From Temnopleurus reevesii (lineage: Eukaryota > Echinodermata > Echinoidea > Temnopleuroida > Temnopleuridae), in contig BQKZ01000250.1 of NCBI GenBank assembly GCA_036244855.1, positions 79,020 through 143,019 of the forward strand: 64,000 nucleotides of DNA. Reading direction: 5' to 3'. The stretch's first letter is position 1; each line of letters opens with the position of its first letter. Under the pieces are notes generated by a model. It worked only from the letters and a program-made list of their open reading frames with translations, did no database searches and was not told where the DNA came from. Both the position numbers and the translations under genes were made by a program. This document shows, in pieces, positions 2,815-64,000 of the stretch.

Positions 2815-2853
<39 letters not shown>
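2815..2853. repeat. Poly-G run of 39 bases
   Basis: Uninterrupted G from 2815 to 2853. Length is likely to be imprecise in any assembly. Confidence 0.9.
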
Positions 2854-9111: not shown

Positions 9112-9160
9112 TGTTTTTTATTATTATTATTGTTATTATTATTGTTGTTATGGGGGAAAA
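9112..9160 (-). repeat. TAA-rich stretch, possible 3' tail of the retrotransposon
   Basis: On the minus strand this reads as TAACAACAATAATAATAACA followed by more AATAAT units and an A run. It lies about 200 bases downstream of the retrotransposon stop codon. I-clade elements often end in TAA repeats, so it may be the 3' terminus, but it could be an independent microsatellite. Confidence 0.4.
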
Positions 9161-9365
9161 CTTTGGAAGTTTTAAATTCTACTTTGGATTAAAAGATCAT
9201 GGTGGAGCGTGGATTTGTTGTTGAGACAGATATGTATTTCTAAATATTTTATTTCCCTCTACTTTGCACTTATTTGTTTGTTTTACTTAAAACAAGATGG
9301 TATACAAATCCATTAGCGTTGGGCTACATAACTAAACTTAAAGTTCGTTCTTTATTATAATCGAT

Positions 9366-12040: not shown

Positions 12041-13664
12041 TATCGTAAATCATATTTGATTTTGGATGGGAATAATCTGACATATAATTGGTTCATAATT
12101 GTGTGAAATCTTATCCCCATTTACTGGTACAAGTATATTTCCTGGAGAGCTAATACCGGAAATCTTGTGTGGAACCAAAAGACAAACGATGCCCTGAACA
12201 TTTTTTGTTATTCCTGAGGAATCGTTCAATAGGTTTTATTTATTTGCTCAATTGAGCATTCAGTTTGAGTTTGTTCGATTCCGTAGTGGATATTTTCTCT
12301 CATTACCCCAACAGGGGGATTATCTGTAAGTTTTTGAAGCGAAAAAGTCTGGACAGGGGAAGACACAGAAGAATAATTTTGGATTTCCCTGCATGCATCA
12401 TCAATAAAGCGTGCAGTCCAATTTGAGGCCAGACTACCAGATAGAAAGGAGATTAAAATGTTCAATGCGATTTAATCCTACTAGAGGAAATGATATGGAT
12501 TAAGTTACAGTTAACAACAGAATTATTTGTACCTCCTGGGAAATAACAGATTTTTAAGATTTTGTTTAAAATGAAAAAGGTTAAAATCTGAAGTAATCAT
12601 TTACATAGGTTTTCACTAAAATACATGGTATCAAATGAGTACCGGTAACTTATTTACTTGAAGAATTAAAATTCTGCCCAGTCCGGTAATATTCAGAATT
12701 TACAATTAAAAAATGTCAATGATTTTTTTTGTCATGAAATAACTTAAATCAGAAGTACCTGTTTGATGTCCCCACTTTGTACTTACTGTTTCATTATTGA
12801 AATAAGTTCCTGATCTGCTAATATTTTTATATGAATTGCAGATGAAATAATAATTCACTTTGCTAGAGCCTGCACTCATGGCGTAGAGCTTATGAAGTGT
12901 TTGTCACAGCGCAAATACTGAAGTGTGCTGATGTTGAATGATTTTGCTCTAATTCTGTTACTGATGTAGTGTTTTAAGTGGGTCAACAAGACTTTACTGC
13001 TTGACCGTATTTAGAGGTAATCGGTTTGATTAGGCTCCCTGGAAAAATAGAAATTTTGAAAAATTATGGCTGAAGTGCAGGGAGACTTGAATATGATGGA
13101 TGTGAGAAAATAAAATGGTTATCACAGAGACTGTAAGTGGCTGGGAACAATTGCATTTTGATCTGTAAGCTTATGCCTAATGTCTACTTCAATACACAAA
13201 ATCATATCCTCATATGCCAATGAAAGGAAATGGCTAATATCGCCCAGAATTGAAGAAAAATTTAGCCAATTCAGACACTGCTTTTTCTGAATATTTGGAG
13301 ATAGAAGTGATTTAATTCATCAGCAACTGCCTGATCGCTTACAGTTCTCCTACAACACACTTAATGGCGAATAAATTAAACCCCCAAGAGGAGCTTGATT
13401 TGGTGATTTTAGAGCGTGATCATTTCACTGGCCCAAAACCACATGATTTCTGAGCGCTGATCGGATTCCACTCTTTTTGGAATAGTAAAGGATTATTGTA
13501 TCCTTTCATATTTTCAGATATTGAGGATCACTCATAATTAAACATACTTTCAAATAATTTGGTAATATAAGGTTATATGTGTTCAGCAAATTAAGATCAT
13601 GGAAATGTTGGATAACATGACCAGAATATTTAGCATAAAGTGCATGGAACACTGTGGTATAGTG
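12041..13664. other. No recognisable gene
   Basis: Contains one short stop-to-stop frame on the minus strand (12226-12474) of plausible amino-acid composition but no recognised family. Otherwise featureless AT-rich DNA. Confidence 0.45.
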
Positions 13665-13858
13665 GCTCTTGTCTTTCAATCAGAATGTCTTGGTCCAAAC
13701 CCCATCAATATTTCCTTCAGCAAGAAATTTATCCACACTGTGCTGCACCCAACCCAGGTGAGATGGGCACCTTAACATTGATGTCTCATGCAATTGTTTA
13801 TACTGGGCTAAAGCTAGGGTTATAATACAAAAATTGTCCTCAGCACTCTGTTAATTTT
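13665..13858 (+). repeat. tRNA-derived SINE copy
   Basis: Shares with the 61221 copy the segment TTTCCTTCAGCAAGAAATTT, then ATCCACACTGTGCTGCACCC and CCAGGTGAGATGGG, and a 3' part with TACTGGGCTAAAGC and CAGCACTCTG. The B-box region has decayed to TGGTCCAAACCCC. Tail is T-rich. Confidence 0.75.
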
Positions 13859-23248: not shown

Positions 23249-23409
23249 TTTCACTACTACCCTGTCGTGGTACCTTTTGACATCAAAGACTACGTCGGAG
23301 CCAAGCGGGAGGAAGCGCGCGATGACCCCTACGCCAGACACGCTTTCAACCAAGTGAAGAGTGATCAGATTCCTTTGGACAGGGCTATTCCAGATACAAG
23401 GCATCTCAG
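23249..23409 (+). CDS. GALNT2: GALNT2-like exon a: end of stem / start of catalytic domain
   Basis: Internal exon of a polypeptide N-acetylgalactosaminyltransferase, the Golgi type II membrane enzyme that moves GalNAc from UDP-GalNAc to Ser/Thr of proteins to start mucin-type O-glycans. The reading runs FHYYPVVVPFDIKDYVG, then DDPYARHAFNQ and DRAIPDTRHLR; the DPYAR, FNQ and IPDTRH blocks are typical of the GALNT2/14/16 subgroup just before the catalytic domain. A TTACAG acceptor ends at 23248 and a GTACGT donor starts at 23410. The exon starts on a codon boundary and ends after two bases (AG) of a codon, which are completed by A at 42340 to give Arg followed by the conserved Cys. The exon with the start codon and membrane anchor was not recognised upstream. 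Assignment to GALNT2 rather than GALNT14 or GALNT16 rests on short motif resemblance and needs a tree. Confidence 0.85.
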
Positions 23410-29636: not shown

Positions 29637-30913
29637 ATCTGGGGTTCCCACGCTTTATAATTAGCATAATTAGCCACGCCTCAAATCGATTTCATTGGTT
29701 CCTATAACTGCCAATAATCTGGGAATAGACTGACCACAATCTCCAGAGAGATCTCCCAAGAGCCACCTGCTAAATAAAATCAACACTGGCCAGACCATCA
29801 CTAATCCCCTTTGGGGCTGATTGACCCAATGGTGAACTCCTCAATTTTATATGTGAGCTTGGTTCTCGGGTCTGTTTGTAAATATCACACTGAAGATGTG
29901 GTTTTCTCCCAATTGTCTTTTTATGTACAGTGGGACTTGCATCATGGAAATATGTTTTTCTTTTTCCCCTATTCTTCCTCATCTTTCTTCTGTTCTCTTC
30001 TCCCTTATTTATAAACATGTTGACCTACTTTTTGCTCCATTCTTATCTGTAATCATTCATATTTGGTTAAACTCCATGAAAATGTATAAATGTAAAATAT
30101 AATGCCCTCTCAAGATTGAAACTATAAAACTATGGAAATAAAAATCAGCCTACAATGTATTTCGTTATAGCATTTTACTGATTTAAATTTGTATCACAAT
30201 CTTACATCACAATTATTTGAAAATAGTATACTCTATTCATGTTATCATTGAAACATTGTCTCATCCTGGATATCCCCATTATTTTCCCCCTCAATCAATA
30301 TCACTCTTTGTTATCATGCAACTACTAACCTGATCAACCCGATACACACAAAAAAAATGAAACCCAAACATCCATTTTAACACATTTAAAAACTTGTTAC
30401 CCTTGCCCGGCCCTAATTGAAAGAAATATCACGTTTTTTAACAAACTTTGCAATTATTGAGCTAACATAATTACGTGCTTAAAATCAGCATAATCCTATA
30501 TTTCATACCTAACAGAAAAAATAGAAAAACTATTCAAAAGTCACATCAGCGCGCATGTTGCACCAAGAATTATGGAGGTTCTCAATTACAATGACTGAAA
30601 TTAGCAATTTGCTTTATTGAATGTGCACAATTCCAAAGGAAAATCTTTAACAATGGAGGACAATTAAGTCTTGCTTGACTTTGGCAAAGCTCTTTTAGTG
30701 AAAATATTGGGAAGTGCACTTCTCTCACTATATATTAATAGTGTAATAAAACTTACCTTTAGAGCATACACTTATGAGTGAAAACAGACTATAGATCAAT
30801 AGAAAGTTATGAATATTTGAAGAATATCTGAAGATTTGTAAACAGTTATATTTTTTAGCAAATGGGAAAACTTGGGTCATGATGACATAGGTTTGTCATA
30901 TTTTCTAGAATAA
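29637..30913. other. Intron sequence, nothing recognised
   Basis: AT-rich; no conserved frame or repeat pair seen. Confidence 0.4.
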
Positions 30914-31089
30914 GGGGGTGTTGCTCAAACGTTACAATTGATCGCAAGTGGCAGTTGATCGAAATAAGCCAATCAAAATAATTGTTTCATGCACGTCTTG
31001 TTAAATGCGCACACCGAGTGCTAATGAAAATGCGCATTGCAATTTTCAAAGTTGCAGTTAATTTGCAGTTGATTCTGAGCAACACCCCC
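30914..31089. mobile_element. 176-bp MITE, copy A
   Basis: Ends GGGGGTGTTGCTCAA and TGAGCAACACCCCC. Flanked by TAA on both sides (30911-30913 and 31090-31092). The interior holds repeated GTTGCAGTTGAT-like strings. Members at 36318 and 51341 have exactly the same length; another member at 39628 is truncated. Confidence 0.9.
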
Positions 31090-32015
31090 TAAGTGTATTT
31101 TCTCTACAATGTAGTTGCTTTTTGTTGTAAAGCTAATGGATTCACAAATAATTCCAGCTCTCAACAAATTCATCTAGTCGAATATATATTATTGATAATA
31201 ACTTCTGAAATATTGTTTGTAAAGAAGAAATATCTGAATTGTTCATAAGAAATGTTTATTTCTGTTGCATATATTATTGGGGAAAAAATCAGTGAAAGTT
31301 TTTACACATGTTTCTAATTTGATGCCATCAGGGGTGCACTACACATACTAAACGTCATTTTGTTTATAAAATTTAAGGTGCAAAATTCATTTTTTCTACA
31401 AAAAGAAACAGAGTTTGAATTCATATAATGAAGCAAAAAGATCCGTATATCTATCATGGAGATATCCTTTAATGAAAGTTTAGAGAAAATACTAATTTGT
31501 GGCAAAAGCAACATTTTGCAGTTGATGTCTTATGCGTCGAGGACGTTATTTATCTCAGTAATCAAACATTCATAAGTTTGCTACAAATTTCTAAAAAATG
31601 TTATTGGTCCATCTGATTTTTCTGCTCATGTTAACCAAATATTATTTTCAGGTAGAATTTTTTTTCATAGAAGTCAATTCATTTCTATAGGAATTAACAT
31701 CTTTTAAAACAAAATTAAGTGAAAATGTAATATATCTGCAGCAGGGTGTTTTGTTTAAAATACATGTATTTGTTATTTCTATGATTTCCTCTTCCTGCAT
31801 TTAACCAGCTTATGTTATGAATTGACATTATTTAAAACAGAGACTTAAAAATGATATTTCTTTCAACAGGAGCAGGACAAGTTAAGCAAAGTAACAAAGT
31901 TTGAAAAAATCAGACAATTAATAAGAAAATTATGAATGTCACTTGTGAAATCCTTAGACATATTGGCAATACCTTGGGGGCATAATTGACTGATTCAAAT
32001 GATTTCCTCAAAACT
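31090..32015. other. Intron sequence, nothing recognised
   Basis: AT-rich DNA between two mobile elements. Confidence 0.4.
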
Positions 32016-35034: not shown

Positions 35035-36317
35035 CCTATAAATGTTACTGTATAAACTGCCCATGCAGGCTGGGTATGTGTGTGTGCAGACTAATGGGGT
35101 CATTCACACTACAAAATCAAAGAGATTTGGACGGAACACCGATGTAACCAGCGCAGCATTTGCATGAGAGAGGTGATTCAAGATTCATATTCAGAGCCTT
35201 GAAAGATGAATGTCCAAACTGAAAAATTTAGGGAATGTAAACCAACAAAATGTATGAAAAATTGAGCACAAATCTATGGCGTAGTGCTACTTTGTAGACA
35301 ACCAAGAACGCCATCGATCGTGGGATAAAAAAAATGCACACATTTATCCTCGCAGTGGAAATGCCCATAATGCATAGTGGGATTAAATGCATCAATATTG
35401 AAACTACCTGTCCACTCGAAATTCTGGGTGATATTTCTACAAAAATCACACTATAATAATTCTTTGTACTGACACTGATTTTGTATATATTTTAAAAAGA
35501 TTTATTACGAATATAAATGATTAGGCTAGTATCTCATGATTAGGCTACCGCGGGATGGAAAGATAGAAACTGTAGAGGGAAATCGAGGCCCAAATCGAGG
35601 TCCGTCACATGTGTTAGCAAACGCGCTCAAAGGATGTCTAGCGACCCTTCCATCTGAAGTAATTAGAGCCTGTAGCAATTAGAGCGTACTTCATTTTGGT
35701 TATGGAGTTGTCTTTTTGCGGATCATGAGATAGTGATTGGACATATCCACGTGGTGTCATTAAGAGATGCCTTTTAGAGCTAAGTTTCCATGACGAGACC
35801 TATCTCCCTGAGACTCTGATGGAGGTATTCGTAGCTGTTTGAGAACCTTTTTACGGCTTATTCATTAATTACAGAAATAAAGATAAAAGCCAAGGGTTTT
35901 CACATTTTTCTAGGTTGAGAAAGGTATTGGCTGTCTCATTTGTGAAATAAAATATCTTTGATATTGGAACACAAGCATCCTCATCATTTTAATGTCATTC
36001 TGAGTATGAATTAGAATAAGATTGTGCCCTAAATTTTTTTAAAGAGAGGTTGTTGCTCAGAATTCAATTTGAAATATGAATTATCATGAGTAAAACAGGA
36101 AATATTAAAATGCAACACAAGCTTTTCCATCATTTTCATGTCATTGTGAAGTCAAAATGCAACTAATATTCTATTCAAATATCACTGAAGATGCATTGAT
36201 GATTAAAGGTTGAAAACTACATTTGCATACTTTACAATTATGCTTACAACTTGTTCTGTACCTCGGATATACCAAAATAATAACTTCAATGAAATTTTTT
36301 AGTCATTGGTAGTCTAT
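35035..36317. other. Intron sequence, nothing recognised
   Basis: A GGGTCATTCACAC string at about 35097 resembles the ends of the 24226-25016 element, but no partner end was found. Confidence 0.4.
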
Positions 36318-36493
36318 GGGGGTGTTGCTCAAAAGTTGCAATTGATCGCAAGTTGCAGTTGATCGGAACGCGCCAATCAAAAGCATTGTTTCATGCGCGT
36401 CTTTTTAAATGCGCATACCGTGCGCGAATGAAAATGCGCGTCACAATTTTCAAAGTTGCAGTTGATTTGCAGTTGATTTTGAGCAACACCCCC
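36318..36493. mobile_element. 176-bp MITE, copy B
   Basis: Starts GGGGGTGTTGCTCAAAAGTT and ends TTTTGAGCAACACCCCC. Flanked by TAT on both sides (36315-36317 and 36494-36496). It keeps GCGCGT and GCGCAT strings lost or mutated in copy A. Confidence 0.92.
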
Positions 36494-36543
36494 TATGACA
36501 TTTAATTCAAATAAATATCTATTCCATTGTTTGTCATCTTTCT

Positions 36544-38285: not shown

Positions 38286-39627
38286 GACTAACATTACTGA
38301 TTTCAAGAGAGGACTAACATTTCAAGGGATGGTGAAGCCAAATACATAATTCATTACCACTTCATCCATGGCTAACCTTGGATGGGTTGATTATATTATC
38401 TATTCCACGCTCATCATAACAGATATTTTTGTGATGAGTAATAACTGACAGTGTGCACAATAATCCTTTTCCAATCCAGAATATCTGTGATCAGATGCCT
38501 CTAAAACCTAGTGTAGTGAATGCAATTTCTACTTCTATATGGAATTGTATAGTGTTACAGCAGAATCGACGCCAGGTCATTCAAGCAAGGGGTGCACAAA
38601 TAATGAAAGGATCAATATGGGCACAAACCACCCATCCCCCAACATTATTAGGGGTGATCCCCTCCCTGCCCCGTGTCCCTCCCCCTCTCCCCGCCCCCAC
38701 ACTGATGGTGCTGCCACAGATTTCCAGCTTTTCAATGGTACTAATTGTTTTAAATGCACTCTGGTAGTAGAAGTGACATATACGTCATAGGATACGCAGA
38801 TCCATAGGACCCCCCCCCCCACCCCGAAATGTGATTTTCTCTTTCTACATTTTAGAGCAAATTTAGCCCTTCATCAAATGCTAGATTTGTGCCTAATGCT
38901 GCCCTTATTTATTCATATTACTGAGGCTGACATCGGTGTTGAAAGAAATTCAATCCTCAAGCTTCATTTGCTAACTAGTACATACCATGAACAAGCATCT
39001 GTGTTTAAGTGTTGAAATTCCCTGATGTAGTAATAATGCCATCCCACCGCCAGATTTGTCACTTGAATCGCACAGCCTCTTATTCACATGGATCATTGCA
39101 TTGCAATTTTAAAAGCTCACACGAAATTAGCAGCAATCAAAGAGGGATTTCATCTTGTTGATTGATCCGTGTATATTTACTGACATCTGACCAGATAATT
39201 GACGTAGGGCTCCTTTCATGTAAGATCCTTTGACATTTTCTTGGTACTATCATTTTTGTTCTTACTGCTCCTTTTCCATGCAGTACACTTAGCGTTCAAA
39301 CACAGACCCAATCCAGGCAGTTACATACAATCCTGACAAGTATTAGAGGTATCTGCGTGAAAGGAAGTCTAGTTTCTAGATTTGAATTATTTCTCGTTCA
39401 TGTATAGTACACACTGAGAAATTAGGGCGCAGTATTGCACCCTTAGGGGTAACTACAATAGCAGCACACTTCAAGGTGGGAGATAAGCATTCATAGGATA
39501 CATGCACTCTTAGGGTGCACTTGTATTCTTAGGGTGGAGATATGCACCCAGTAGTGTGTCGCTATTGTAACATAATGTCTTTAATAGTGTGTACAAGTTG
39601 AAATTCTGTGCTGCACTACAACACTAT
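38286..39627. other. Intron sequence, nothing recognised
   Basis: A short C run at 38811-38820 and scattered low-complexity strings. The AGGGTGCA and GCACCC strings near 39440-39545 are suggestive of a small degenerate inverted repeat but too weak to call. Confidence 0.4.
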
Positions 39628-39762
39628 GGGAGTCTTGTTCAAAATTTGCAATTGATCGCAAGTTGCAGTTGATCGGAACGCACCAATAAAAAAAAAAAAT
39701 CATTGTATCATACCCATCTTGTTAGAAGCACATATCATGCGTGAATGAAAATGCGTGTAATA
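39628..39762. mobile_element. 176-bp MITE family, copy C (truncated, diverged)
   Basis: Starts GGGAGTCTTGTTCAAAATTT after TAT, followed by GCAATTGATCGCAAGTTGCA as in the other copies. It has an inserted A run and loses homology after about 39762, so the right terminus is missing. Confidence 0.8.
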
Positions 39763-39934
39763 ATTAAGAATAAATTGTATAATTTTTTTAATCGGATGAT
39801 GCGGTTTTGTAGTTTATGTGATACAGTACTCTACTCGCCTACAAATTTTTGCGGAGATATCATGATCAACGGCCGAGAACAGAAGAGGGGAGGGGGGCTA
39901 GGAGGCTAAGAGAACTCCCAAAATACCCTGACCT

Positions 39935-40035: not shown

Positions 40036-41520
40036 GCCCTATGAAATACTCGAGAGACTCAAACTAAAGACTTCTTCAAAACGGCTTGCAATTTCTCCCC
40101 AAGAGGCTCCAACTCACGAAGATTAAGAAAATGGATGCAAAAATAGGAGTCGGTGATAGCAGAAGATTTGATTGATTAGAAAAAGAAGTACATCATCCTT
40201 TTAATTGAGTGCTCCCCAATTGCCTCTCAATATTAGATGGTCCATAACATGGGCACGGATCCTTAAAACTTCATTAAGTTGTTTCACTCCATCGCATCAA
40301 CCATCCATCATTAATGGATAATGCCGACTGTATAGCTCCTCTCTGCGTGTTCAGACGATAGCCAATTTATACCGAAACGTGATAAAGAAAAAATGTGTAA
40401 AAGATATACTTAGTAACCATTCAGACATGCTTTGCAACTGAACTTGTATTGTTATATGTTTGTGTTGCTTATCCTTTGTCTGCTATATGTTTTATTGTTA
40501 TATACTTAATACTCATATGCAGTTTTTATATTGTTCCGCTTTAAGGTTTTCATACAGTTATAGTATAATTTTTAAACGTTTGAATGCACTGTTAATGACA
40601 ATACTCCACATCTATTATATACAATTATGATAACTTGTTCATTTCCTCAAGGACCTTGTAATGCAATTACAATTTAATACCTTATTTGAAGAAGTACTTC
40701 TATGCAATTAACCCTAAGTGGTGTAATGAGCATGCACCCATACATTATATACACGCACATAATGATTACTGATTCTTTTGACCGTGCGCGGTCGAGGATT
40801 CATCTAGTTTTATTATAGCTCATGAAGTAGTTAAATATATGAACTGCCATATCTCTCAAAACTGATCTTTAAGTTCAACAAATAGATATGAAATTGTTGT
40901 CCACATTAAAGTTCAAGGAATTTCATTATTGAAATAATGCACCTCTGATTGTATAATGGACATGACGCTTTGCGTGAAATTGTCCCATTGTCAAGGAGAA
41001 AGCTATATTCTATCAATCTATGAACTTGGATTGATTAGTGGATAGTACCAGCATATGTACGAGCAGGATGTTGATGGAATTTATGATGTCTGCGGGCTGC
41101 AAGATGTACAGTGTTTTCTTTATTATTATTAAAATTTTTTTTGAATTCCAGAGAATTACTTTTTTTTAATTGCATTGTTTGGAAAAAGTTGGGCTTTATT
41201 TTGTTTATTTTGTAGAATATCTTAGAACAGACTTTATTTGGAAAATAAAACTTAGAATGCAGTAAAAAGTGTTAAATCATCTGAATATTACTTTTCAAGT
41301 TTAATTTCACATATTTATTTATAAAATTCAATGAATTAAACATATCCTAACATGTTCTAAAGAAGAGCTGGGCGACTTTGGGGGCTCTATTTCTGAATAC
41401 CGTGTCACAGATTCCATGGGATGCCAAAAACAAGTCAAACACCCTTGGGTAGCCAAATCATGGATATGTGTATGCACATCTAGTTTTGAATGCTTCTCCT
41501 GATTACAAAAAAAAAATTGT

Positions 41521-41925
41521 GATTCTCCTTGGCTTTTTTGGGGGGAGGGGGAGGAGTTAGACAAAAGTAGAGAGGAAGAAAGAACTACAATATTCTTCAG
41601 CTGTTCTCATGCTTTACTTTATATTACTTTTTATCTTCACAAATCTTTTCGTCATCCAGGACCAAGATGGAAACCAATTTTACCTTGTTTATATTGATCT
41701 AGTTATACTGTTTAAACATCGTGATTCCCTTTGTGGCTTTTTTTTTTTGGGGGGGGGGGGGGGGAGGGGAGGAGTTAGACAAAAATAGAGAGGAAAAAAG
41801 AACTACAATATTGTTCAGCTGTTCTCATACTTTACTGTATATTACATCCTCCAGTCCCAAGATGGAAACCAATTTTTACCTTGTTTATATTGATCTTGTT
41901 ATACTGTTTAAACATGTTTGGATAA
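41521..41925. repeat. 200-bp internal tandem duplication (also at 43468-43872)
   Basis: Unit 1 (41521-41720) and unit 2 (41721-41925) share GGAGTTAGACAAAA, GAACTACAATATT, CAAGATGGAAACCAATTTT and GTTATACTGTTTAAACAT. They differ by substitutions, a longer T/G run in unit 2 and a deletion of about 25 bases in unit 2. This is a genuine older duplication, unlike the block duplication that contains it. Confidence 0.88.
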
Positions 41926-42339
41926 ATAGATAAATGAATAAATAAGATAGATGAATAAGTTAATTGAAAATGTATGGATGCATTTCCTTCTGATTCAGTA
42001 TTTCTATTTCCCCATTTCACCCATTTCATTACTTTTGATGATGAACTGAGTAATGTAACAGCCTTCAGGCCACTCATTAAGTGATGAGCCATCCATTTCC
42101 ACCCCACAAATGATGAACATGACCTTTTCTCTTTCTCAACAAAGCAGCAAATACATGTCACAAATTGACAACTGAAAGTTCAGCTTAATGAGTTTCCCCA
42201 GTCACTCCTCTTTATTACCCATCTGAATGCATTACAGATTGCCTGAAAAGTCCATTTGTAATAGATTTCATAACCATGGTGATATATACATCCTTTTCAC
42301 ACGTCCTCTCTTCCTTTCTTCATCCTTTTTTTTCTTCAG

Positions 42340-42441
42340 ATGTCATAAGAAAGCGTACGATGTTTCAAGGCTACCGGCTACGTCGATCATCATAACGTTT
42401 CACAATGAAGCTCGTTCCACATTATTAAGAACAGTTGTTAG
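42340..42441 (+). CDS. GALNT2: GALNT2-like exon b (first assembled copy)
   Basis: Second recognisable exon. It reads [15 protein letters not shown] and then [18 protein letters not shown]. The [14 protein letters not shown] block is the start of the GT-A fold in this family and forms part of the UDP-sugar pocket. The acceptor is a pyrimidine-rich tract ending TTCAG at 42339; the donor is GTAAGT at 42442. The exon is 102 bp: one base finishes the previous codon, 33 codons follow, and two bases (AG) carry over. Because its length is a multiple of three and it enters and leaves in the same phase, including it twice would not shift the frame. An identical copy lies at 44287-44388 inside a perfect duplication that looks like an assembly error, so only one of the two should be kept unless long reads show otherwise. 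Confidence 0.85.
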
Positions 42442-42721
42442 GTAAGTCTTCCATTGTCATTGTGTGAACGGCAAAAGGGCATAAATGCAATTAATTAATT
42501 AAGACAATCTTTTAAAGTTTACAAACGTGAGACATTCTATTTGCAATAACATATTTTGTAATGGTATCTCATCATCCAAATGAATTTTGGTGATTCAATT
42601 ATCAATAGTTTCAGAATGAAGGTCCAAACTGAAGCATTATGCACCTATCAATTGTAAGACGCACCCCTCGACCCCCGGGAATGGTGCGTCACTTGTCAGA
42701 TGTGAGTCGGATTTTCCTATA

Positions 42722-42722
42722 N
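42722..42722. other. Single ambiguous base (N), probable contig junction
   Basis: The only N in the window. It separates the two identical 1946-bp blocks, as expected if two overlapping contigs were placed end to end with a minimal gap. Confidence 0.85.
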
Positions 42723-44668
42723 TTTTGACCGTGCGCGGTCGAGGATTCATCTAGTTTTATTATAGCTCATGAAGTAGTTAAATATATGAACTGCCATATC
42801 TCTCAAAACTGATCTTTAAGTTCAACAAATAGATATGAAATTGTTGTCCACATTAAAGTTCAAGGAATTTCATTATTGAAATAATGCACCTCTGATTGTA
42901 TAATGGACATGACGCTTTGCGTGAAATTGTCCCATTGTCAAGGAGAAAGCTATATTCTATCAATCTATGAACTTGGATTGATTAGTGGATAGTACCAGCA
43001 TATGTACGAGCAGGATGTTGATGGAATTTATGATGTCTGCGGGCTGCAAGATGTACAGTGTTTTCTTTATTATTATTAAAATTTTTTTTGAATTCCAGAG
43101 AATTACTTTTTTTTAATTGCATTGTTTGGAAAAAGTTGGGCTTTATTTTGTTTATTTTGTAGAATATCTTAGAACAGACTTTATTTGGAAAATAAAACTT
43201 AGAATGCAGTAAAAAGTGTTAAATCATCTGAATATTACTTTTCAAGTTTAATTTCACATATTTATTTATAAAATTCAATGAATTAAACATATCCTAACAT
43301 GTTCTAAAGAAGAGCTGGGCGACTTTGGGGGCTCTATTTCTGAATACCGTGTCACAGATTCCATGGGATGCCAAAAACAAGTCAAACACCCTTGGGTAGC
43401 CAAATCATGGATATGTGTATGCACATCTAGTTTTGAATGCTTCTCCTGATTACAAAAAAAAAATTGTGATTCTCCTTGGCTTTTTTGGGGGGAGGGGGAG
43501 GAGTTAGACAAAAGTAGAGAGGAAGAAAGAACTACAATATTCTTCAGCTGTTCTCATGCTTTACTTTATATTACTTTTTATCTTCACAAATCTTTTCGTC
43601 ATCCAGGACCAAGATGGAAACCAATTTTACCTTGTTTATATTGATCTAGTTATACTGTTTAAACATCGTGATTCCCTTTGTGGCTTTTTTTTTTTGGGGG
43701 GGGGGGGGGGGAGGGGAGGAGTTAGACAAAAATAGAGAGGAAAAAAGAACTACAATATTGTTCAGCTGTTCTCATACTTTACTGTATATTACATCCTCCA
43801 GTCCCAAGATGGAAACCAATTTTTACCTTGTTTATATTGATCTTGTTATACTGTTTAAACATGTTTGGATAAATAGATAAATGAATAAATAAGATAGATG
43901 AATAAGTTAATTGAAAATGTATGGATGCATTTCCTTCTGATTCAGTATTTCTATTTCCCCATTTCACCCATTTCATTACTTTTGATGATGAACTGAGTAA
44001 TGTAACAGCCTTCAGGCCACTCATTAAGTGATGAGCCATCCATTTCCACCCCACAAATGATGAACATGACCTTTTCTCTTTCTCAACAAAGCAGCAAATA
44101 CATGTCACAAATTGACAACTGAAAGTTCAGCTTAATGAGTTTCCCCAGTCACTCCTCTTTATTACCCATCTGAATGCATTACAGATTGCCTGAAAAGTCC
44201 ATTTGTAATAGATTTCATAACCATGGTGATATATACATCCTTTTCACACGTCCTCTCTTCCTTTCTTCATCCTTTTTTTTCTTCAGATGTCATAAGAAAG
44301 CGTACGATGTTTCAAGGCTACCGGCTACGTCGATCATCATAACGTTTCACAATGAAGCTCGTTCCACATTATTAAGAACAGTTGTTAGGTAAGTCTTCCA
44401 TTGTCATTGTGTGAACGGCAAAAGGGCATAAATGCAATTAATTAATTAAGACAATCTTTTAAAGTTTACAAACGTGAGACATTCTATTTGCAATAACATA
44501 TTTTGTAATGGTATCTCATCATCCAAATGAATTTTGGTGATTCAATTATCAATAGTTTCAGAATGAAGGTCCAAACTGAAGCATTATGCACCTATCAATT
44601 GTAAGACGCACCCCTCGACCCCCGGGAATGGTGCGTCACTTGTCAGATGTGAGTCGGATTTTCCTATA
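42723..44668. repeat. Second copy of a perfect 1946-bp direct duplication
   Basis: Identical to 40776-42721. It is contiguous with the rest of the TIR element (44587-45231) and downstream exons. Most likely the start of the next contig overlapping the previous one. Confidence 0.93.
44287..44388 (+). CDS. GALNT2: GALNT2-like exon b (second assembled copy, probably artefactual duplicate)
   Basis: Identical at every base to 42340-42441, including acceptor, donor and flanking intron. The offset is 1947 bp, the same as for the whole repeated block. Joined to the exon at 45687 it gives the conserved run LLRTVV-SVLSRSPPQL. Of the two copies this one is contiguous, without an N, with the downstream exons, so it is the better one to keep. 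Splicing in both would insert 34 extra residues that repeat the FHNEARS block, which is not known in GALNT enzymes. Confidence 0.6.
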
Positions 44669-45231
44669 CCATGACGCACCTGTGTGTCTCGACTATGACA
44701 GACCTTTTCTTACAATGACTGTGCCTGGACGAAAAAATATGACGCACCAGTTCAAGATTTTGACTGACCATTGTGACGCACCCCGTCATGGTAAAGTGAC
44801 GAAAAATACCTTATTTCTTCCTTTTTTTGAGAACCCAGACAGAAGACAGCATGAGAAGGATTTGAGATCAATTATTATTATTTGGGGGTTTCCATTTCAT
44901 TTGATGTCATCAAACACGATTTTGGGCGCCCGGTGCGAAAGTATAGATTCCATGTCAATATTTTTTTTTTTATATTCAAGGAGTTTGCATGTTTAAAAAC
45001 CCGGTACGCGGTGGTACGCGTACGCGGACAGACCCGTTTGTAAACATGTCGAGGCATATTTATGACGCACCCATGTAAAATGACCGACTATGACGCACCC
45101 CATTGTCCATGCTGTGACTGACCAAATGCTTCCATGACCATACCCTGCGTCATTCATTTGTTGGTAAATTACCCAACCATGACGCACCTTTCCCGGGGGT
45201 CGAGGGGTGCGTCTTACAATTGATAGGTGCA
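44587..45231. mobile_element. 645-bp DNA element with 42-bp perfect TIRs, TTA target duplication, GACGCACC motifs
   Basis: The left terminus (44587-44628, starts TGCACCTATCAATTGTAAGA) is an exact reverse complement of the right terminus (45190-45231). TTA flanks both ends (44584-44586 and 45232-45234), which fits the 3-bp TWA target of PIF/Harbinger elements. The 8-base string GACGCACC, or its complement, occurs about nine times, including in both TIRs, usually as ATGACGCACC in the interior. A CpG-dense core lies at 45000-45030. The frames at 44586-44996 and 44993-45232 start with the same residues only because both read into a TIR; no transposase motif was seen. Confidence 0.9.
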
Positions 45232-45686: not shown

Positions 45687-45754
45687 CGTTCTCAGTAGAA
45701 GTCCCCCTCAGCTGATAGAGGAGGTGATTCTGGTTGATGACTGCAGTGATGATC
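45687..45754 (+). CDS. GALNT2: GALNT2-like exon c: GT-A VDD region
   Basis: Reads SVLSRSPPQLIEEVILVDDC and then SDD, ending one base into the next codon. The ILVDD.S.DP segment is conserved across GALNTs; the Asp pair lies in the nucleotide-sugar-binding half of the GT-A domain. The acceptor is TAACAG ending at 45686 and the donor is GTAAGC at 45755. The carried C joins CT of the next exon to make Pro, restoring the family's Asp-Pro after the VDD block, which confirms the junction. Cys follows the Asp pair where Tyr or Phe is usual in the vertebrate enzymes. The SPPxLI run resembles GALNT2 more than GALNT14/16. Confidence 0.88.
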
Positions 45755-47407: not shown

Positions 47408-47473
47408 CTGCTGATGGTGAAATCTTAACCAGTATACCGAAGGTGAAGCTCATACGCAACAATGTCAGGGAAG
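47408..47473 (+). CDS. GALNT2: GALNT2-like exon d
   Basis: Short 66-bp exon reading ADGEILTSIPKVKLIRNNVR and then EG across the next junction. It corresponds to the segment between the VDD motif and the RSR.RGAD motif of GALNTs, where the pattern PKV..LRN..REGL is typical. The acceptor is a TTTTCAG at 47401-47407 and the donor is GTATGT at 47474. The first two bases complete a Pro codon begun in the previous exon and the final G is completed by GT of the next exon to give Gly. The intron before it is about 1.65 kb and holds a G-run and an inverted-repeat element. Confidence 0.88.
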
Positions 47474-49544
47474 GTATGTATATCTTGGGGTTTCTTAGGG
47501 TTTAGGGTAAATTCTTTTAATATATATTCAGAATCTTAGAATCCAGATTTTCTATGGCTGAATCTAAGCTTTTCCAAATACTAATAATACACTTAATAAA
47601 AAGGAGAAAGCACTGGCAAGTTATTTGGAAATGATAATTCTTGTAGAAAAGAAATTTTATCGCCTAGATGCCAACCTTCCTTAAAATGCATGAGGATAAA
47701 AATGAAATCAATCAGTTGAACCATACTCTTTCTCTCTTTGGTTTAATACCTATTTAGCAATTCTTTTCTATTCTCATATGCAATATACATCCCAGGAAGT
47801 AGGTATTTTATATATTGTCATGGATATATACAACATGAGAGAGATTAATGAGAAATAAAATTCATTCTTATTCATTTTAGCTTCTGTAAAATCATATTAT
47901 TTTTAAGCCAGACCATTCAAGATTCCATGCCAGACCACATAATCTATAATTACAAATACTTGTTTCTGAGATTTGAGGATCAAAAATATGCACAGATCAT
48001 CATTAAAAAATGATCATGCGTAGAGGATCGCCAAAGGGGATATTACAACCCACTGAGACTTTCATTGTATTTGAATAAGATTTACTATACCATTTCTGAT
48101 ATTTTGGTCTGCTAGATTGTGGGAGGTCCTGCAGCCATCGCGCATTCGACCTACTTTCTCCAGTTTCTGTTAGTAATCAATGTTGAGGAAGATGTATTTG
48201 TATATTTTCTTTTAGGGGGATGGAGGGTGAAGAAACTTTGCCATTTTTGAATACTTTAAAATGATTGCATGTCATGATACTAGCATATCTCACTTTTAAG
48301 TAATCAATTCTGCCTTCAAAGATCACTGGATTCTTGTTCTTCCCTCTGGCTACTCTATATCGCTAAATTCATCATGGTATATGCTATCATTTTGTCCTGA
48401 CATTTCTCAAACTACAAATATTAATTGATTTTCCGGTAGAATTTCATAATGCTACACAAGTCTCTTCCTGCTGTGAGGCCTACTTTTTATCACCCTTTTG
48501 CGTGGGTCGGTCAATAAGTCGCTATCATTGCCTTGTCTATTGATCCGAAAACAATTCTATTTCATCCTTTACATTTGAGGTGTTCGACTACAAATTTTTT
48601 CTTGTAAGAACTATATTATACACCACCTTTCGCATTTCTGTGTTATATTATACGCATATCAATGGCTTTAATGGGGCCTAAAGGTGTGCACATGAATATT
48701 TAATTCTTATCCTTTGAAATAGTCCCCTGCGTTGGCCGGCACATTCAAGAAGAATTTATGCTAAATCCTCTGTGAATCGCAACTTACGTGACGATGTAAA
48801 TATACCTCAGTGGGACAGCCCCAACTGTATTGTTTGAAGTGAGATGTGGGATGGATAGAAAGAGTATTAACAGCAAAAACAATTCAAATGGGATATATAT
48901 GGGAGAAATTGGAGAAAGGGGTTTCCAATGATGTTTTATCATAATTGTGTTTACTACCCTCATTATAAAAGAGATATAAAAAGAACAAAGCTGGGAGATT
49001 TAAACCAGCAGTTCAGTTTGTGTCCTACTTTGAAGGGAAGTCCAGATTTCATCAGCATGTTAATGATCTTGAGGAATTGTAATGCAGTTATATATCTAGA
49101 TATTTCTTGATTTTGAGAAAGGATTATATTTTATGAAATCTATATTCAAACCCTGTGATAATTTTACTAAACTTCTCATTAACGTGCAACACTGTAGGTG
49201 TATCTTAAAACTGAGTACCCGATGATTCATACATCATATCTATTCTCATTGGCACGAGATAAAATTTACAAAAGTAAGTTAAAATTGACATGATTGCAAA
49301 TACCAGTATTTTTTTTGCCAAAGCTACTCAGAAATTATGGGAAATACAGTTTAGATATGTTCAAACATCAGGGAAAATTGTTATAGCCATTCTCACAGTT
49401 GTCATAAGGTCATGAGCAACTTAGTATCGTGAAATGCTGACTATTGGGAGTGCTCTGCAATTTAAGTATCTAAATCTGTCTGTGTTCAAATGTCCTATTA
49501 TCATCTCACTTGTGATACTTTTCATACCCCCCCCCCCTCATCAG
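47474..49544 (+). other. Intron between GALNT exons d and e
   Basis: About 2.07 kb, AT-rich, with a C run just before the acceptor. No extra exon or repeat recognised. Confidence 0.6.
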
Positions 49545-49666
49545 GTCTAATACGATCTCGTATGAGAGGCGCTGACGAAGCCAAAGGCAGCGTCTTGACG
49601 TTTCTGGACAGTCACTGTGAAGCGAACACGGGGTGGTTACCACCGCTTCTTGAACGAGTAGCGCAG
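49545..49666 (+). CDS. GALNT2: GALNT2-like exon e: DxH metal-binding motif
   Basis: Reads [20 protein letters not shown], then [23 protein letters not shown] is the DxH motif of the GT-A fold whose Asp and His bind Mn2+ together with a later His; the LTFLDSHCE and W..PLLERVA context is almost invariant in GALNTs. The acceptor is C9TCATCAG ending at 49544 and the donor is GTTAGT at 49667. The exon ends on a codon boundary. The following exon should begin with the Thr-Arg-Val-Val block found after this point in the family; I read to the end of the window on the plus strand and did not find it, nor the WGGEN motif or the lectin repeats. The gene is therefore seen only in part. Confidence 0.9.
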
Positions 49667-49810: not shown

Positions 49811-51340
49811 ACCATGCTTTATTAAAGTCAGTCCGTCACGCCATGAACTTCCGCATTGCAGGAACTGGGTGGGGAGGTGGCGGATTGACGGTAGCGTTAT
49901 AAGAGAGTACATGTATTCTCATTTACAGGCACAGCAAATGCAGAAATGAAATTAAAACCCACTGAACCGAAGGAATTTGCGGGAAAGTGGGAGAAATTTA
50001 TGAATCAAAAATATTTTGTTAGTGGTGGAGATAATGAAATCTCGCGACAAATAAGCAACTTGCAAAGTGCATAAGCAAGGAAGTTTTGTTTTAACGCTGT
50101 TGTCAAAGTGCAGGTTTGCCACATGTCCATGCTCATAGTTTGGAGGTTCACAGTGTGACATACTTGAATTTATAAGAACTAATTTTTAATTTTTATTTCT
50201 TTCGACATTTGTGAAATCCAAATTATGGTCTGACTATATGAAGGAAAACTTGACCTACTTTATTAAAATCTCTACAGGGATAGTGAGAAACCGTCTTCTT
50301 ATGCAAATGTTATGGAAGCTTGTCAGTAGAGATTTTGCAATGATATAATCCATAATGCAAGGTGTTTAGGCTACATTGTGCATCCTAAATTTATGAGGTC
50401 ATGGAAAACTTTCTCCAAAGTTTAAAAACAAACTGCAGTCAGTCTTAGAAACTGTTATTGATTGAGATGGTTCTAGGCTAAGGATGAAAACAGAACGACC
50501 TTTTACTGCTTCTGCCAAAGAGAGCACAGTGAACTTGAATGTTTTTAAAGTCTAATTCTATTAGCAATGATTTTTCCCCATCATCAATACCTTGATATGA
50601 GAAGGAAAATAGAAAAATAGAGAACGCTTAAAGGGTCCAGTGACAGGAAGATGTATCTCCATTTGAGTGAAAATAAGATTTTCAGATCAAAATGTTCAGG
50701 AAAATGTAACATATGTAATGCACATGATGGTGTTAAATGTTTCTTATCACAAAGAAACCAAATTTCAGAATTTGTTTTCATATGCTAAGCAATGCGGACC
50801 AAATGAATACTGTAAAAGCCATTATTTTAGCATGCATAAATTTTAGCAAATTCAATGGATTTCAGACACATTTACATATTAATGGATTGTTATTTACATG
50901 TTTTTAATTCTTACTGTATACAAGTCTATCGGCATCACTACGAGTGGAAATTTCAGCGAAGTCAGGGATGCAAAATTAGCGATACTAAAAATCCAGCGAA
51001 AATATCGGCTTTTATAATACATTTCTCAAAATGGCCAAAGTGAAGTAACGTCTTTGTGTCGCTCAACCCTCAACCTGAGGTTCTATCTCTTGATTTGTTT
51101 TTGAAAGGATCCTATATTTCAACACTGAGAGGGTTGCCTGAAGAATATTGCATTGAGAAATCAATTAGGGAAATGAGAAATGAATATGATTTGTTTTGCC
51201 CAGACTTGGGGATATAGCGTCAACATGATTTTAGATGTCGGGGATCGGAATGCATTGCACACACTGAGAAAGTGCCTGCAACTTGGTTCATTTGAGGACA
51301 TATGTCTGCCTATACTATCTATTGAAATCTGATAGTCTTA
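49811..51340. other. Nothing recognised
   Basis: AT-rich; no conserved frame seen. Confidence 0.4.
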
Positions 51341-51516
51341 GGGGGTGTTGCTCAAAAGTTGCAATTGATCGCAAGTTACAGTTGATCGGAACGCGCCAAT
51401 CAAAATCATTGTTTCATGTGCGTCTTGTTAAATGCGCATACTGTACGCGAATGAAAATGCATGTTACAGTTTTCAAAGTTGCAGTTGATTTGCAGTTGAT
51501 TTTGAACAACACCCCA
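51341..51516. mobile_element. 176-bp MITE, copy D
   Basis: Starts GGGGGTGTTGCTCAAAAGTT and ends GAACAACACCCCA. The left flank is TTA and the right flank CTA, so the target duplication has decayed or the right boundary is shifted by one base. Interior closely similar to copy B. Confidence 0.9.
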
Positions 51517-54500
51517 CTAGTTGGCGTAGATAATATATTTGAATTGAATTTTTGCTAAATGATGTTTGATATGTTTACTGCCAACATTACAACTTTACTA
51601 TAGATGTGTGTTAACTTAGCTACCCTTCTACAACAACTCTTTTAGATCAGGATGTCATAGAAGACAAGTCTATATAAATATTTGTCAAATATTTATTTCA
51701 TGATTTTTTGGCATGTCATTTTGGATTGAATAGATCTTATTTCTGATCAAATGAGAGTCGACTGAGTTCCAGTCTTAAATTATTTAAAGATTGAGAGCTA
51801 ATTGAAGAGGCCTACAGTGTGTTGTGAATTGAATCATTCTTTTTCAAGTACTTTCTTGTTAGAAAATTATATGATCCTCCTACTGAGTCTATCTCAGATG
51901 GTCTTCTTTTTTTGGTCTAGGGTCCAGTATAGAACCTGGGATCTCTCCCTTTTCAGCCATTTCATGCTAGATGTGTTTTTATGAACCCAGAGCGACCTAT
52001 AAGTTTTTGCTTTGTGTGGAGGTATAGGAGCAGAGTGTGAATAGCGGATTAGTACCTTTCGTGAAAACCTGCAGTTTCGCTGATAAATTGGATGGTATTT
52101 ACTGGATGGAATGCAGGATTAAGGGTTTTTTAACAGATATTTGAGCTGGAAAACGAGAGCTTTTATTCGATGGTGTGATCGAAGCGTGTCATAATTTGAT
52201 GGATTACTCAATTTTGGGTCATAGAGGTGTGATAATTGTTCGGCATGTTATGTTTACAGAAAAGCTCTATGATAGTCTGGACTTTCTAAAGATATCATCT
52301 GCACATGATCAATCAAGTTTTTGACACATTTGGTGTAGGCCCCATTTTTTTCCTCAAAATGTGCAATCAATGTTCTCTCATGCTCTCAATCTTACAATGA
52401 TCAAATTTTGAAGATCCAAACATTTGTCTGTTTTTGTGGAAGGGTACATGTAGGTGCGGGAGGAGCGCAGTGTTTTTTGAGAATAGGGGTAGGGGGCATT
52501 CACACCACACACACATGTATGCATGCTTCTCATAAATATGGCCATGGGTTTCGAATCACAGGTGAAACATAGATTTTGAGCAAGAAATTTATTATCAACA
52601 TCATACCGCACCCAACTCAGGGGAGGTGAATTGGTGCTTAGCCAAAACTGTATATGTCTATTGTTTGTTTTGGTGCATTCAGCCAGGATGGGGGTCAGCT
52701 AAATCCTGTAATTATCAGAATTATCAAAATTTTGGAGGCAACAAAATTCTCTACAAGAAATATATAAAGGATTTTCAACTGATCAGCGGAGTCTTTTTTA
52801 TTTTCTTTCAATGTTCCAATACATCTAATTTTTGCTTTTTGTGTGCCTGGTCCGAGACCTATTACATTTTCTGCACCCCTCTTTTGCTCTCATGTTGCCT
52901 CCTAAATCTATCGAGGAAGCCTTTACTAATGTCCCTGTTGCTCATTTTGCTAAGCTACCTCGCCAATTTTCTGCTTAGAACGCTCCCTATCCAATAAATC
53001 CTAACTTCGGTAATCCATCAATTCATTAATTGCATCCTCAAAAAGTGAATACAATACTGTTGGGGAAGAAAAGCACATTTACACCATCGATATGGTCACA
53101 AAAGCTGTTACTTCTACCACAGTGACTTGTCTGAAAAGAAGGGGCTCCTTTCAGAAATGTGTTTTGGTGAAGTGAAGTCAACAGGCTTATTATAAGAATT
53201 GTTGTTGAAGTTCTCTGAGGCACTTCAAAGAATCTGTATAGGAGATATTAGCGATAGAGTTAGACACCGACTGAAGTTATTATTCTCTAATCATCTAATT
53301 CGTGTGAACTGTCATCGAGTGTGTTTGCATATAAGGGTAATCTGAAGATGACCTGGTAGTATCAAAAGGTGTTTAGAAGGTGTCTTGTACAAGCTAATAT
53401 TTTACAAATAAAATCATCTATATACTGACTTTGTATCAAATGGAGTACATATACTTTGTAATGAAGTAACAAACGTGGCAACTTTGCTACTTGAAAAAAA
53501 ACCAGTTATTATCATAAAAGAGGTACTAAACTGAAAGAGTCATTTTTATTGCGAATTTTTTTATAGCGATATCAGATAGCAAAAGATTTTGAATTGCTCC
53601 TAACATATAGCATTTAGCCAACATTATATGTTCAGACATGTAATGTCTAATGAAAATAATGCAGATTTGCTTGAAAGATGTACATGTAGATAAAGTATAC
53701 TTTAATTTTTTCTGAAAAGCTTTTATAGAAGATGATATATGGGACCATACATTGGTATAAACAAAATATCTGACAATAGACAACTTTCTTTGTCAAATGG
53801 ACAATGACAAACTTTTTATTCACCCAATACAAAATAATCCTGTTTCAAATCCTGTTTTCGGAAAATATGGTAAGCATACAGTGGTTGTTGCTATGTTGGT
53901 CATGCTACAATGTTTGACTGACCTAGCGATGTGAGTGTAACCAGGCTCTTACTATTGAAAGCTGAATACATAGTTCATCTCGGGGCAAAGGTGAATAAAT
54001 TTGAATATATTACACAATTGGTCTGTTGTGCATACCCACATTTGCTGATTATATTCTGAATCGATTTATTTTGAAATCATGCTTTAAAAAGATTCTGTAA
54101 ACAGTAAACATCTCAAAGTTCCATTCGATTGTAAAAGAAATGTGTGGTCTTCATGAGATATGCTTTTCTTTCATTTTCACACATCAATAATAAACATTCC
54201 CCTATTTTGGGGTCTAAAGTGGGTGGTCCCTTTTTTCATTTGCCGTTATTCCATTGATGATTGAATAGAAATTCTGATCAACACAGGTAATTAGCTACTC
54301 TTCTTTGGCATGAAATCAGAAGTTATGTTTGACAGGAGACACAATGTTGCAAGATCCTTGAGGTGGGATGTTTCTCATTGAGATGCAGAATTGATAGGTC
54401 ATGAAACCGCTCTGTCATGACTGACAAATGGACATTACAATGAGAAGAGAGGCAGAAGAGCATTATTGTGTAAGGTCAGAAGCCACTAGTCACCGCTAAC

Positions 54501-55474
54501 GTGTTATCTATTTTATTTCTATTGATATGAAAGCCTCTTGGAAATCCTAATTTGATGTTTGGATATTTTTCTTCATCAAATTAATGAATTAGAAAAACAA
54601 CAACTAAAAAATCCCCCCCCCCCAAAAAAAAACCAACCACATGCAGGTTTGTAAAGAGTAGGCCTCAATATTTCTTGATTATTAAAGAAATGTAGCATAG
54701 GATTTCTTTCACATTTCTATAGTTGACACAAAATAGAAGTATTGATTTGTAGCAATAGATTTATCTGCCTTTGCAGGCTACATTTTGTGGGAAAAGCATT
54801 TTATGTACTTCAATGTAGTCATTTCTGACTAACACTGGGAAGTTCTGTAAATAGTATGTATTTCTTTGATTACTTTAAGATTGGTTCGAGAACATTCTTA
54901 ATTTTTCCCTCATATCTGTTTATGAATTAGCTTGTCACATGGGAAGGGGCCTTTTCAGTAAAGAAAGTTGTGGTCATTTTTTTGGTCAGGAGTTTAGATT
55001 TTTAAACGTGCAAAGGGAACTGAAAGAGAAGGCCAACGTTCTGTGTAAACCTAAAAGTCTCTACAATAGAAGGGGATCACCTGTAGCCAGCAGGAAGGGC
55101 AAACCAAAATAAGTTGCAGCTTTTAGGCTTCTTGCTGTATAAAAGTAGATTATCCTTCATAAACGACAAGAAAGTGTAGATAAATACCCTTCCTTTAGTC
55201 TAATTAAAGCAATTAAGATAATCCTTCCTGGAGATAAAGTACATCAAAACATGCATTGAAAAAAAAGGTATGTAATGTCGCCCATGGGATATGCGCGAGG
55301 TCAGTTTAGCGCCATAAACACAGGACTTGAATAGACTTTACAGGGTTTTGCATTTTGTTGTGCTGGTCCTTTGGGTAATTTGTCGGATGTTGCGGATTAT
55401 TGATAGCAAAGATGTTTAGAAATTAGAAGCAGGTTTGTAACATCATGATGTCATCTCATTGAAATGTTATTAGG
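51517..55474. other. Nothing recognised
   Basis: About 4 kb of AT-rich sequence; a C-run/A-run junction lies near 54614-54631. No repeat pair or conserved frame was seen by reading. Confidence 0.4.
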
Positions 55475-58608: not shown

Positions 58609-59213
58609 TTAAAGGTCCACTATTATGAACATACACGTTGATCTGTATTGATGTATTATACCATTATCAATACCCTTTTCACTGAAAAAGAGTCCAAATG
58701 TGTTTCATATATTTTATAATATTTTTTCTTCATTTTTATGTTGGCTTAGTTGGGAATGCCCCTAAAAATTTCTTTCAAATGTCAATCATGTTGTGACATC
58801 ACAAGAGTCAAGTTTGTTCACCTTTCTAGATCATGTTTCAGAGCTGGTTCTGTAAATAACAAAAGGAAATATGTGGATCAATGCAGGTATTTCAATTCAG
58901 GTGATTGCGCATTTCAATTCTCTTTCATGAGAATACCTGCATTGATCTACATATTTCCTTTTGTTATTTACAGAACCAGCTCTGAAACATGATTTAGAAA
59001 GGTGAACAAACTTGACTCTTGTGATGTCACAACATGATTGACATTTGAAAGAATTTTTGGGGGCATTCCCAACTAAGCCAACATAAAAATGAAGAAAAAA
59101 TATTATAAAATATATGAAACACATTTGGACTCTCTTTCAGTGAAAAGGGTATTGATAATGGTCTAATACATCAATACAGATCAACTTGTATTTTCATAAT
59201 AGTACCCCTTTAA
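58609..59213. mobile_element. TTAA-flanked 597-bp near-perfect foldback element
   Basis: Element 58613-59209 lies between TTAA copies at 58609-58612 and 59210-59213. The left arm (to about 58893) and the right arm (from about 58932) are almost fully complementary over about 280 bases, with a centre of roughly 40 bases. Ends are AGGTCCACTATTATGAACAT and ATTTTCATAATAGTACCCCT. The arms are much longer than ordinary TIRs, so a transcript would form a long double-stranded hairpin. Open frames on both strands share residues because of the palindrome. Confidence 0.92.
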
Positions 59214-63055: not shown

Positions 63056-64000
63056 TCAAACACATCGGATAGTGCAAACAGGGCTCTACAGAAACCACAG
63101 CGTTTAATGATTGGAGCCCTACTGATTTAAGGGACAGGTGGCGAGGATCAGAATCCAAACTGAAATATAACTTGCTATGGTTGCAATTTCCGTCCTCCAT
63201 CATCTTCTGGTTATAATAAAAGGTATATTGGTCCCATGGCTCTCGTTTTCAACACATGTTTTTTATTTCCTTCTACATATGCTTCTCACTGTTTCAGTGT
63301 CTGTGATGTAAAGTTTTTATATTCAAACATTGGCAGTGAAAGAAATATGGATTTGTGGAGTTCAATTTGATGTCTGCAAGTTATGGAAGTTTCGTGGGGC
63401 CAGTCTGTCTGGGCAGTTGGCTTCGGCCTTGAGATGTTGGAGAGAACTTGGACCTTGTATACTGCCTTCTTTGATATTTTTTTCTGCAGGATTAAAGAGA
63501 GATTTTGACTTTTTGTGTTTTCCCATAGCTGAGTTCATTGTAAAGTTCATTAATATAAAATTGCAACAAATACAATATAATTTGGGAGGGTTATAGATAC
63601 CATTTAATGTGATTAAGTTTAGCAGTAATCAGGACAAACATATATACATGCACATCAAATTTTAATAGGATTTAATCTTGCCAAAAGCTACACAGTGTGG
63701 AGATTTTTATTGGGTTTTGAAACATGAATCATCTGGATTAGACAATGGTTTGATGGCTATTCAGACAGAAGTACTCTTGTCCTTGTTTGATGCAATATTA
63801 TGTATCCCCGATTGGACTGTCAAAGGGGCATCATTCACCCCCCCCCCCAAAAAAAAAAAAAAAAAAAAAAAAATCACTAATATTTTTACCACTAAATAGA
63901 ATATTCTTCCGGAAAATGTTTCATTGTAGAGAACATTGCATTTCAAGTGAACTGAATATGTGCAACTATTTTACAAATGGACAGAAGCACAGGGGGTAGG
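63056..64000. other. Nothing recognised; C10A23 homopolymer junction at 63839-63871
   Basis: A run of C directly followed by a long run of A. Otherwise AT-rich without conserved frames. Confidence 0.45.

What the first reader, a model, noticed from the sequence alone, without database searches (positions are those of the whole stretch)
40776..44668. Perfect 1946-bp tandem duplication joined by a single N: probable unmerged contig overlap
Blocks 40776-42721 and 42723-44668 look identical at every base, including a T11G16 run that would normally differ between real paralogous copies or alleles. The junction is the only N in the window. Identity ending exactly at the N on one side is what an end-to-end placement of overlapping contigs produces.
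Basis: seen in the sequence. Interest (0 to 1): 0.75.

Follow-up and report, generated by a model that had tools for sequence, protein, structure and literature searches.

The report
Unmerged contig overlap, not a duplication
A 1,946-base stretch appears twice in a row in this draft animal genome almost certainly because two overlapping assembly pieces were laid end to end around a one-letter gap, so a sugar-transferase gene falsely seems to have one exon twice.

Summary
In the window's own assembly (558 Mb, 10,433 contigs) the search reported the full unit only as these two copies. A lone N is a recurrent join mark: 5 lie in the 221,502 letters I read from two scaffolds, beside 4 long N runs. 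At 2 of 5 an exact direct copy (1,946 and 531 bases) begins at the first base after the N; no other exact direct repeat above 241 bases within 6 kb was found, and 0 of 4 long gaps show one. The left block stops 82 bases inside a dispersed inverted-repeat element; in 2 of 6 other fetched copies sequence also breaks off inside it. The unit carries a 102-nt exon of a GALNT2-like glycosyltransferase; one copy gives the normal protein, two would insert 34 residues. This fits a 'duplicated overlapping contigs' error with a false exon gain. Reads were not available, so a very young real tandem duplication stays possible (about 3%).

The parts
40776..42721 (+). First copy of the 1,946-base block; read as the 3' end of the left contig
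   Evidence: Identical to 42723-44668 at 1946 of 1946 positions, no outward extension; C250:119795-121740
42722..42722 (.). Lone N; join mark between two contigs
   Evidence: Only N in the window; 5 lone Ns in C250 (172,000 of 172,845 bases read) and C12:390001-490000 together
42723..44668 (+). Second copy; read as the 5' end of the right contig
   Evidence: C250:121742-123687
42340..42441 (+). GALNT2-like exon (102 nt, phase 2-2) in the first copy
   Evidence: AG/GT borders; matches PDB GalNAc-T2 chain 2ffu_A
44287..44388 (+). The same exon in the second copy (apparent extra exon)
23249..23409 (+). Upstream exon of the same gene
   Evidence: tblastn lead, AG/GT borders, collinear in the joined alignments
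45687..45754 (+). Next exon of the same gene
47408..47473 (+). Following exon of the same gene
49545..49666 (+). Following exon of the same gene; codes part of the Glycos_transf_2 domain
   Evidence: Pfam PF00535 E=1.7e-08 on 49541-49666
44587..45231 (.). Dispersed element with 52-nt terminal inverted repeats between TTA and TTA; the left block ends 82 nt into its first copy (42640-42721)
   Evidence: 34 partial genome matches to unit positions 1859-1946; 6 of 6 fetched copies continue past the block's last base as the right copy does

Best explanation
An assembly artefact. The left contig ends at 42721 and the right contig begins at 42723 with sequence that the left one already has from 40776 on; both contain the same 1,946 bases of one locus. 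The scaffolder ordered them but did not merge the overlap and wrote a single N in place of a negative gap. The genome has one copy; the scaffold is 1,947 letters too long here, and one GALNT2-like exon is counted twice. Shown: exact flush overlap, the lone N as a recurrent join mark, a second exact copy beginning right after another lone N, the left block's end in a dispersed repeat, and that one exon copy gives the normal protein. Inferred: that the N stands for a clipped negative gap, and that the two contigs come from the same haplotype.
For: Exact identity flush on both sides of the window's only N. Among 41 reported genome matches only these two are full length. 2 of 5 lone-N joins carry an exact copy starting at base 1 after the N (1,946 and 531 bases); 0 of 4 long gaps; the other four exact direct repeats of 100 bases or more within 6 kb are 241, 181, 171 and 170 bases, none at an N. 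Other repeats over 60 bases within the window are 71-98% identical. The left block ends 82 nt inside a dispersed element; in 2 of 6 other fetched copies (L005, L007) an N run also begins inside the element. One exon copy aligns to GalNAc-T2 and to three echinoderm relatives, including Diadema antillarum, without a 34-residue insert; with two copies the match to GalNAc-T2 splits in two. 120 of 120 listed homologues (of 1,764 hits) have one [FY]HNEA motif. The pattern matches the 'duplicated overlapping contigs' of Kelley and Salzberg, and Ko et al. [quoted passage not shown]
Against: No reads or second assembly were available. 3 of 5 lone-N joins carry no long exact copy; at the other positive join (C250:13292) the first copy ends 3,869 bases before the N, so that case is not a plain suffix-prefix overlap, and whether its 531 bases are a dispersed repeat could not be tested (search not answered). 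If the N were C, the array would read as a 1,947-base tandem unit with one shared base at its ends (40775 and 44669 are both C), which a real duplication could also give. The exon is 102 nt and in phase, so a real duplication would not break the frame. The false duplications of Kelley and Salzberg have a median identity of 98.1%, few above 99.5%, so a perfect one is not their typical case. The two scaffolds read were not a random sample.
Confidence: 0.96

Rival explanations
1. A real, very recent tandem duplication of 1,946-1,947 bases inside a GALNT2-like gene (intron-exon-intron), with one base at the junction uncalled.
For: A new duplication is also identical; the unit carries a whole exon in phase; the C at both 40775 and 44669 would allow a one-base shared junction. 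Exact direct repeats up to 241 bases without an N do exist in the sample.
Against: The only N of 64,000 letters would have to fall by chance on the exact junction; a second lone N in the same scaffold also has an exact copy starting right after it; none of the 120 listed homologues carries the motif of this exon twice.
Confidence: 0.03
2. A sub-case of the artefact, counted inside the 0.96 above: the two contigs are the two alleles of the locus (heterotype false duplication), identical over this stretch.
For: Haplotype differences are a described cause of such errors.
Against: 0 differences in 1,946 bases, including a T11G16 run; described cases have a median identity of 98.1%. The heterozygosity of this animal was not measured.
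Confidence: 0.1

Closest known systems
Duplicated overlapping contigs (DOC), Kelley and Salzberg 2010, PMC2864568
   Same: Nearby contigs whose ends overlap, placed one after the other; mostly under 2,000 bases; in most gene cases mRNAs use one copy of the doubled exon (passages and section 6 seen).
   Different: There attributed to haplotype differences, median identity 98.1%, few above 99.5%; here 100%. Their mate-pair test could not be run.
Homotype false duplication / false exon gain, Ko et al. 2022, PMC9516828
   Same: Duplicates separated by an assembly gap; an exon gained within one gene (passages seen).
   Different: Their calls rest on read depth, linked reads and k-mers, none available here.
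Unmerged overlaps in Bionano scaffolds, corrected by BiSCoT, PMC7649008
   Same: A scaffolder that does not merge an overlap and writes a fixed short gap, so the shared region is doubled (passages seen; called negative gaps and artefactual tandem duplications in PMC8389630, passages seen).
   Different: There the mark is 13 Ns; here it is one N. Which scaffolder made this assembly is not known.

Membership tests
Duplicated overlapping contigs (false duplication) | End of one contig matches the start of the next | tested here: met
   Exact 1,946-base match flush on both sides of the N; that the N is a contig border is inferred from recurring lone Ns
Duplicated overlapping contigs (false duplication) | The duplicates are separated by an assembly gap | tested here: met
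   Lone N
Duplicated overlapping contigs (false duplication) | Mate pairs or linked reads fit better when the contigs are merged | not testable with these tools
   No reads available
Duplicated overlapping contigs (false duplication) | Reduced read depth in each copy | not testable with these tools
   No reads available
Homotype false duplication | No haplotype differences between the copies | tested here: inconclusive
   0 of 1,946 positions differ, but the defining k-mer and depth tests need reads
False exon gain | A whole coding exon is doubled within one gene by a false duplication | tested here: met
   Exon 42340-42441 = 44287-44388; a single copy gives the collinear GalNAc-T; that the duplication is false is the inference above
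Polypeptide GalNAc-transferase (GALNT2-like) | Matches GalNAc-T2 through the start of the catalytic domain | tested here: met
   97 joined residues, E=3.4e-34 to PDB 4d11_C and 2ffu_A; later exons were not found in the window with a recalled C-terminal probe

The most novel reading that the evidence does not exclude
A genuine tandem duplication of a GALNT2-like exon so young that no base has changed, giving two identical, in-phase copies of one catalytic-domain exon in this animal or in the sequenced individual.
Probability: 0.03. Interest if true: 0.3.

Novelty: not a real feature. Interest (0 to 1): 0.1.

Why it matters
It matters as quality control: a scaffold 1,947 letters too long, a false exon in a GALNT gene model, and a sign that lone-N joins of this assembly should be screened. 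In the small sample read here, 2 of 5 carried an exact copy starting right after the N, so a genome-wide screen may find many more.

Tried and rejected
Rfam (0 families at gathering score) and tRNA search (0): nothing relevant. A frame-breaking argument against a real duplication was considered and dropped: the exon is 102 nt, phase 2-2, so two copies would stay in frame. Unequal recombination between flanking repeats: no identity extends beyond the blocks. The first BLAST across the other lone Ns used flanks cut at locus ends and missed the 531-base copy; one search repeated it with joined stretches. Papers: three searches for a single N as a scaffolder's mark for an overlap (44, 0 and 1 papers met the terms, 16 listed in all). 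I opened four of those (passages only: PMC5368935, PMC8389630, PMC3158087, PMC4177539); they speak of negative gaps and of overlaps left unmerged, none of the passages says that one N is written for them. That some scaffolders do so is recalled, not shown. A guess at the species was dropped after one literature search (listing only): the best relative is a Diadema antillarum protein at 80%, so a sea urchin or near kin is likely, no more.

Full report
Observation. One search compared the two blocks base by base: 40776-42721 and 42723-44668 agree at 1,946 of 1,946 positions; 42722 is the only N in 64,000 letters; neither outer end extends by a single base. The identity is flush with the N on both sides. 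[quoted passage not shown]

The copies in the genome. The window is C250:79020-143019 of an assembly of 558,132,977 bases in 10,433 contigs. The search with the block returned 41 matches: the two full-length tandem copies and 39 partial ones, of which 34 lie within unit positions 1859-1946 and 5 within 1075-1189. Only 40 of 1,403 first-look candidates were scored, so the repeat counts are lower bounds; no third full-length copy was reported.

Why the left contig may stop there. From unit position 1865 on, the block holds the start of an element with 52-nt terminal inverted repeats (one mismatch) lying between TTA and TTA; its full copy is 44587-45231, reaching beyond the right block. The left block ends 82 nt inside it. 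Six fetched copies from other contigs (L003-L008) all continue past the block's last base as the right copy does. In two of the six (L005, L007) an N run begins inside the element, about 150-165 nt from its start, and lasts to the end of the fetched stretch. A contig that runs a short way into a dispersed repeat and stops is ordinary.

The lone N as a join mark. I read 172,000 of the 172,845 bases of C250 (window included) and C12:390001-490000. They hold 5 lone Ns (C250:13292, 35823, 121741; C12:478546, 480352) and 4 long N runs (14,181; 6,555; 26,096; 3,661). Left and right flanks were compared by BLAST (flanks up to 15 kb at lone Ns, up to 12 kb at long gaps, shorter where the sample ended). 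At 121741 (the finding) there is the 1,946-base exact copy. At 13292 an exact 531-base copy also begins at the first base after the N; its first copy is 8892-9422, 3,869 bases before the N, and those 3,869 bases have no counterpart on the right, so this is not a plain end-to-end overlap. At C12:478546 the right side begins with a simple repeat that matches left sequence about 1 kb before the N at 82-91%. At C12:480352 a 50-base match at 82% begins at the second base after the N and ends 225 bases before the N on the left (below the cut-off). At 35823 nothing joins the two sides at the N. None of the 4 long gaps shows an exact copy. A scan for exact direct repeats of at least 100 bases within 6 kb, over 221,502 non-N letters, found six: 1,946 and 531 bases, both starting at the base after a lone N, and 241, 181, 171 and 170 bases, none of them at an N. 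The tie between long exact repeats and lone-N joins is hard to put down to chance, though the sample is small and not random: C250 is the window's own scaffold, and C12 was taken because one search showed it to be long.

What is inside. On the + strand the window carries five exons of a GALNT2-like polypeptide N-acetylgalactosaminyltransferase: 23249-23409, 42340-42441, 45687-45754, 47408-47473, 49545-49666. A recalled C-terminal probe found no convincing later exon in the window, so the gene probably runs on beyond it. The block contains the second of these exons, 102 nt, in phase. With one copy, 97 joined residues of the first three exons align to GalNAc-T2 (4d11, 2ffu; human by recall) with one single-residue gap (E=3.4e-34). 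With two copies the match to 2ffu splits into residues 2-49 and 86-131, leaving 36 query residues against one chain residue. The Diadema antillarum protein (80% over 99% of the query) and two sea-star proteins (Acanthaster planci, Asterias amurensis) align through this region with one copy. All 120 listed homologues, of 1,764 found, have one [FY]HNEA motif. This makes a second copy unnecessary for the protein; it does not by itself exclude one.

Explanation. The best reading is that two contigs overlapping by 1,946 bases were ordered by a scaffolder and not merged, the negative gap being written as one N. Only the sequence length and the exon count are then wrong. That negative gaps arise where contigs overlap in repetitive sequence is described for Meraculous (PMC3158087, passages), and ALLPATHS-LG reports overlapping contigs as negative gaps (PMC5368935, passages); that this assembler writes one N for them is inferred, since I found no paper that says so for a named tool. 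A brand-new real duplication would also be perfect, carry the exon in phase, and could even use the C shared by 40775 and 44669; what speaks against it is that the N sits exactly on the junction and that another lone N of the same scaffold also has an exact copy starting right after it.

Known counterparts. Kelley and Salzberg (PMC2864568; passages and section 6 seen) call this class duplicated overlapping contigs and designated 5,698 of 5,947 in chicken, 13,159 of 13,571 in chimpanzee, 1,094 of 1,366 in cow and 8 of 22 in dog as mis-assembled; their false duplications have a median identity of 98.1% and few exceed 99.5%, so a perfect one fits contigs from one haplotype better. Ko et al. (PMC9516828; passages seen) list gaps between the duplicates as a mark of false duplication and name the gene-level effect false exon gain. 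BiSCoT (PMC7649008; passages seen) describes the same with 13 Ns in Bionano scaffolds. Nothing here is new biology.

Noticed in passing
G000 C250:8892-9422 and 13293-13823 (L009, L010), outside the window: Exact 531-base copy whose second member starts at the base after another lone N (13292); the 3,869 bases between the first copy and the N have no match on the right. Perhaps a branched or misplaced contig end.
   Followed up: partly
window 44587-45231: 645-base element with 52-nt terminal inverted repeats between TTA and TTA, 34 partial matches in the genome; looks like a small non-autonomous DNA transposon (a Harbinger-like kind is a guess from the TTA, recalled).
   Followed up: partly
window 58609-59213: 605-base near-perfect palindrome: the stretch matches its own reverse complement at 93%.
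   Followed up: no
window 9369-10667, - strand: 433-codon open frame with an RNase H domain (PF00075, E=2.3e-13); perhaps part of a retroelement.
   Followed up: no
window 30911-31091, 36307-36495, 39624-39765, 51330-51519: Family of about 140-190 bases, four places in the window, 80-92% identical where aligned over 140 bases or more.
   Followed up: no
window 41540-41719 and 41759-41915: A diverged direct-repeat pair (82%) inside the unit, present again in the second copy: a natural duplication inside the artificial one.
   Followed up: no
window 2815-2853, 6143-6166, 54613-54632, 63838-63873: Long homopolymers: a run of 39 G, and three runs of 11 C that lead straight into runs of 13, 9 and 25 A.
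   Followed up: no
window 64000 / C250:143020: A 6,555-N gap starts at the base after the window's end.
   Followed up: no
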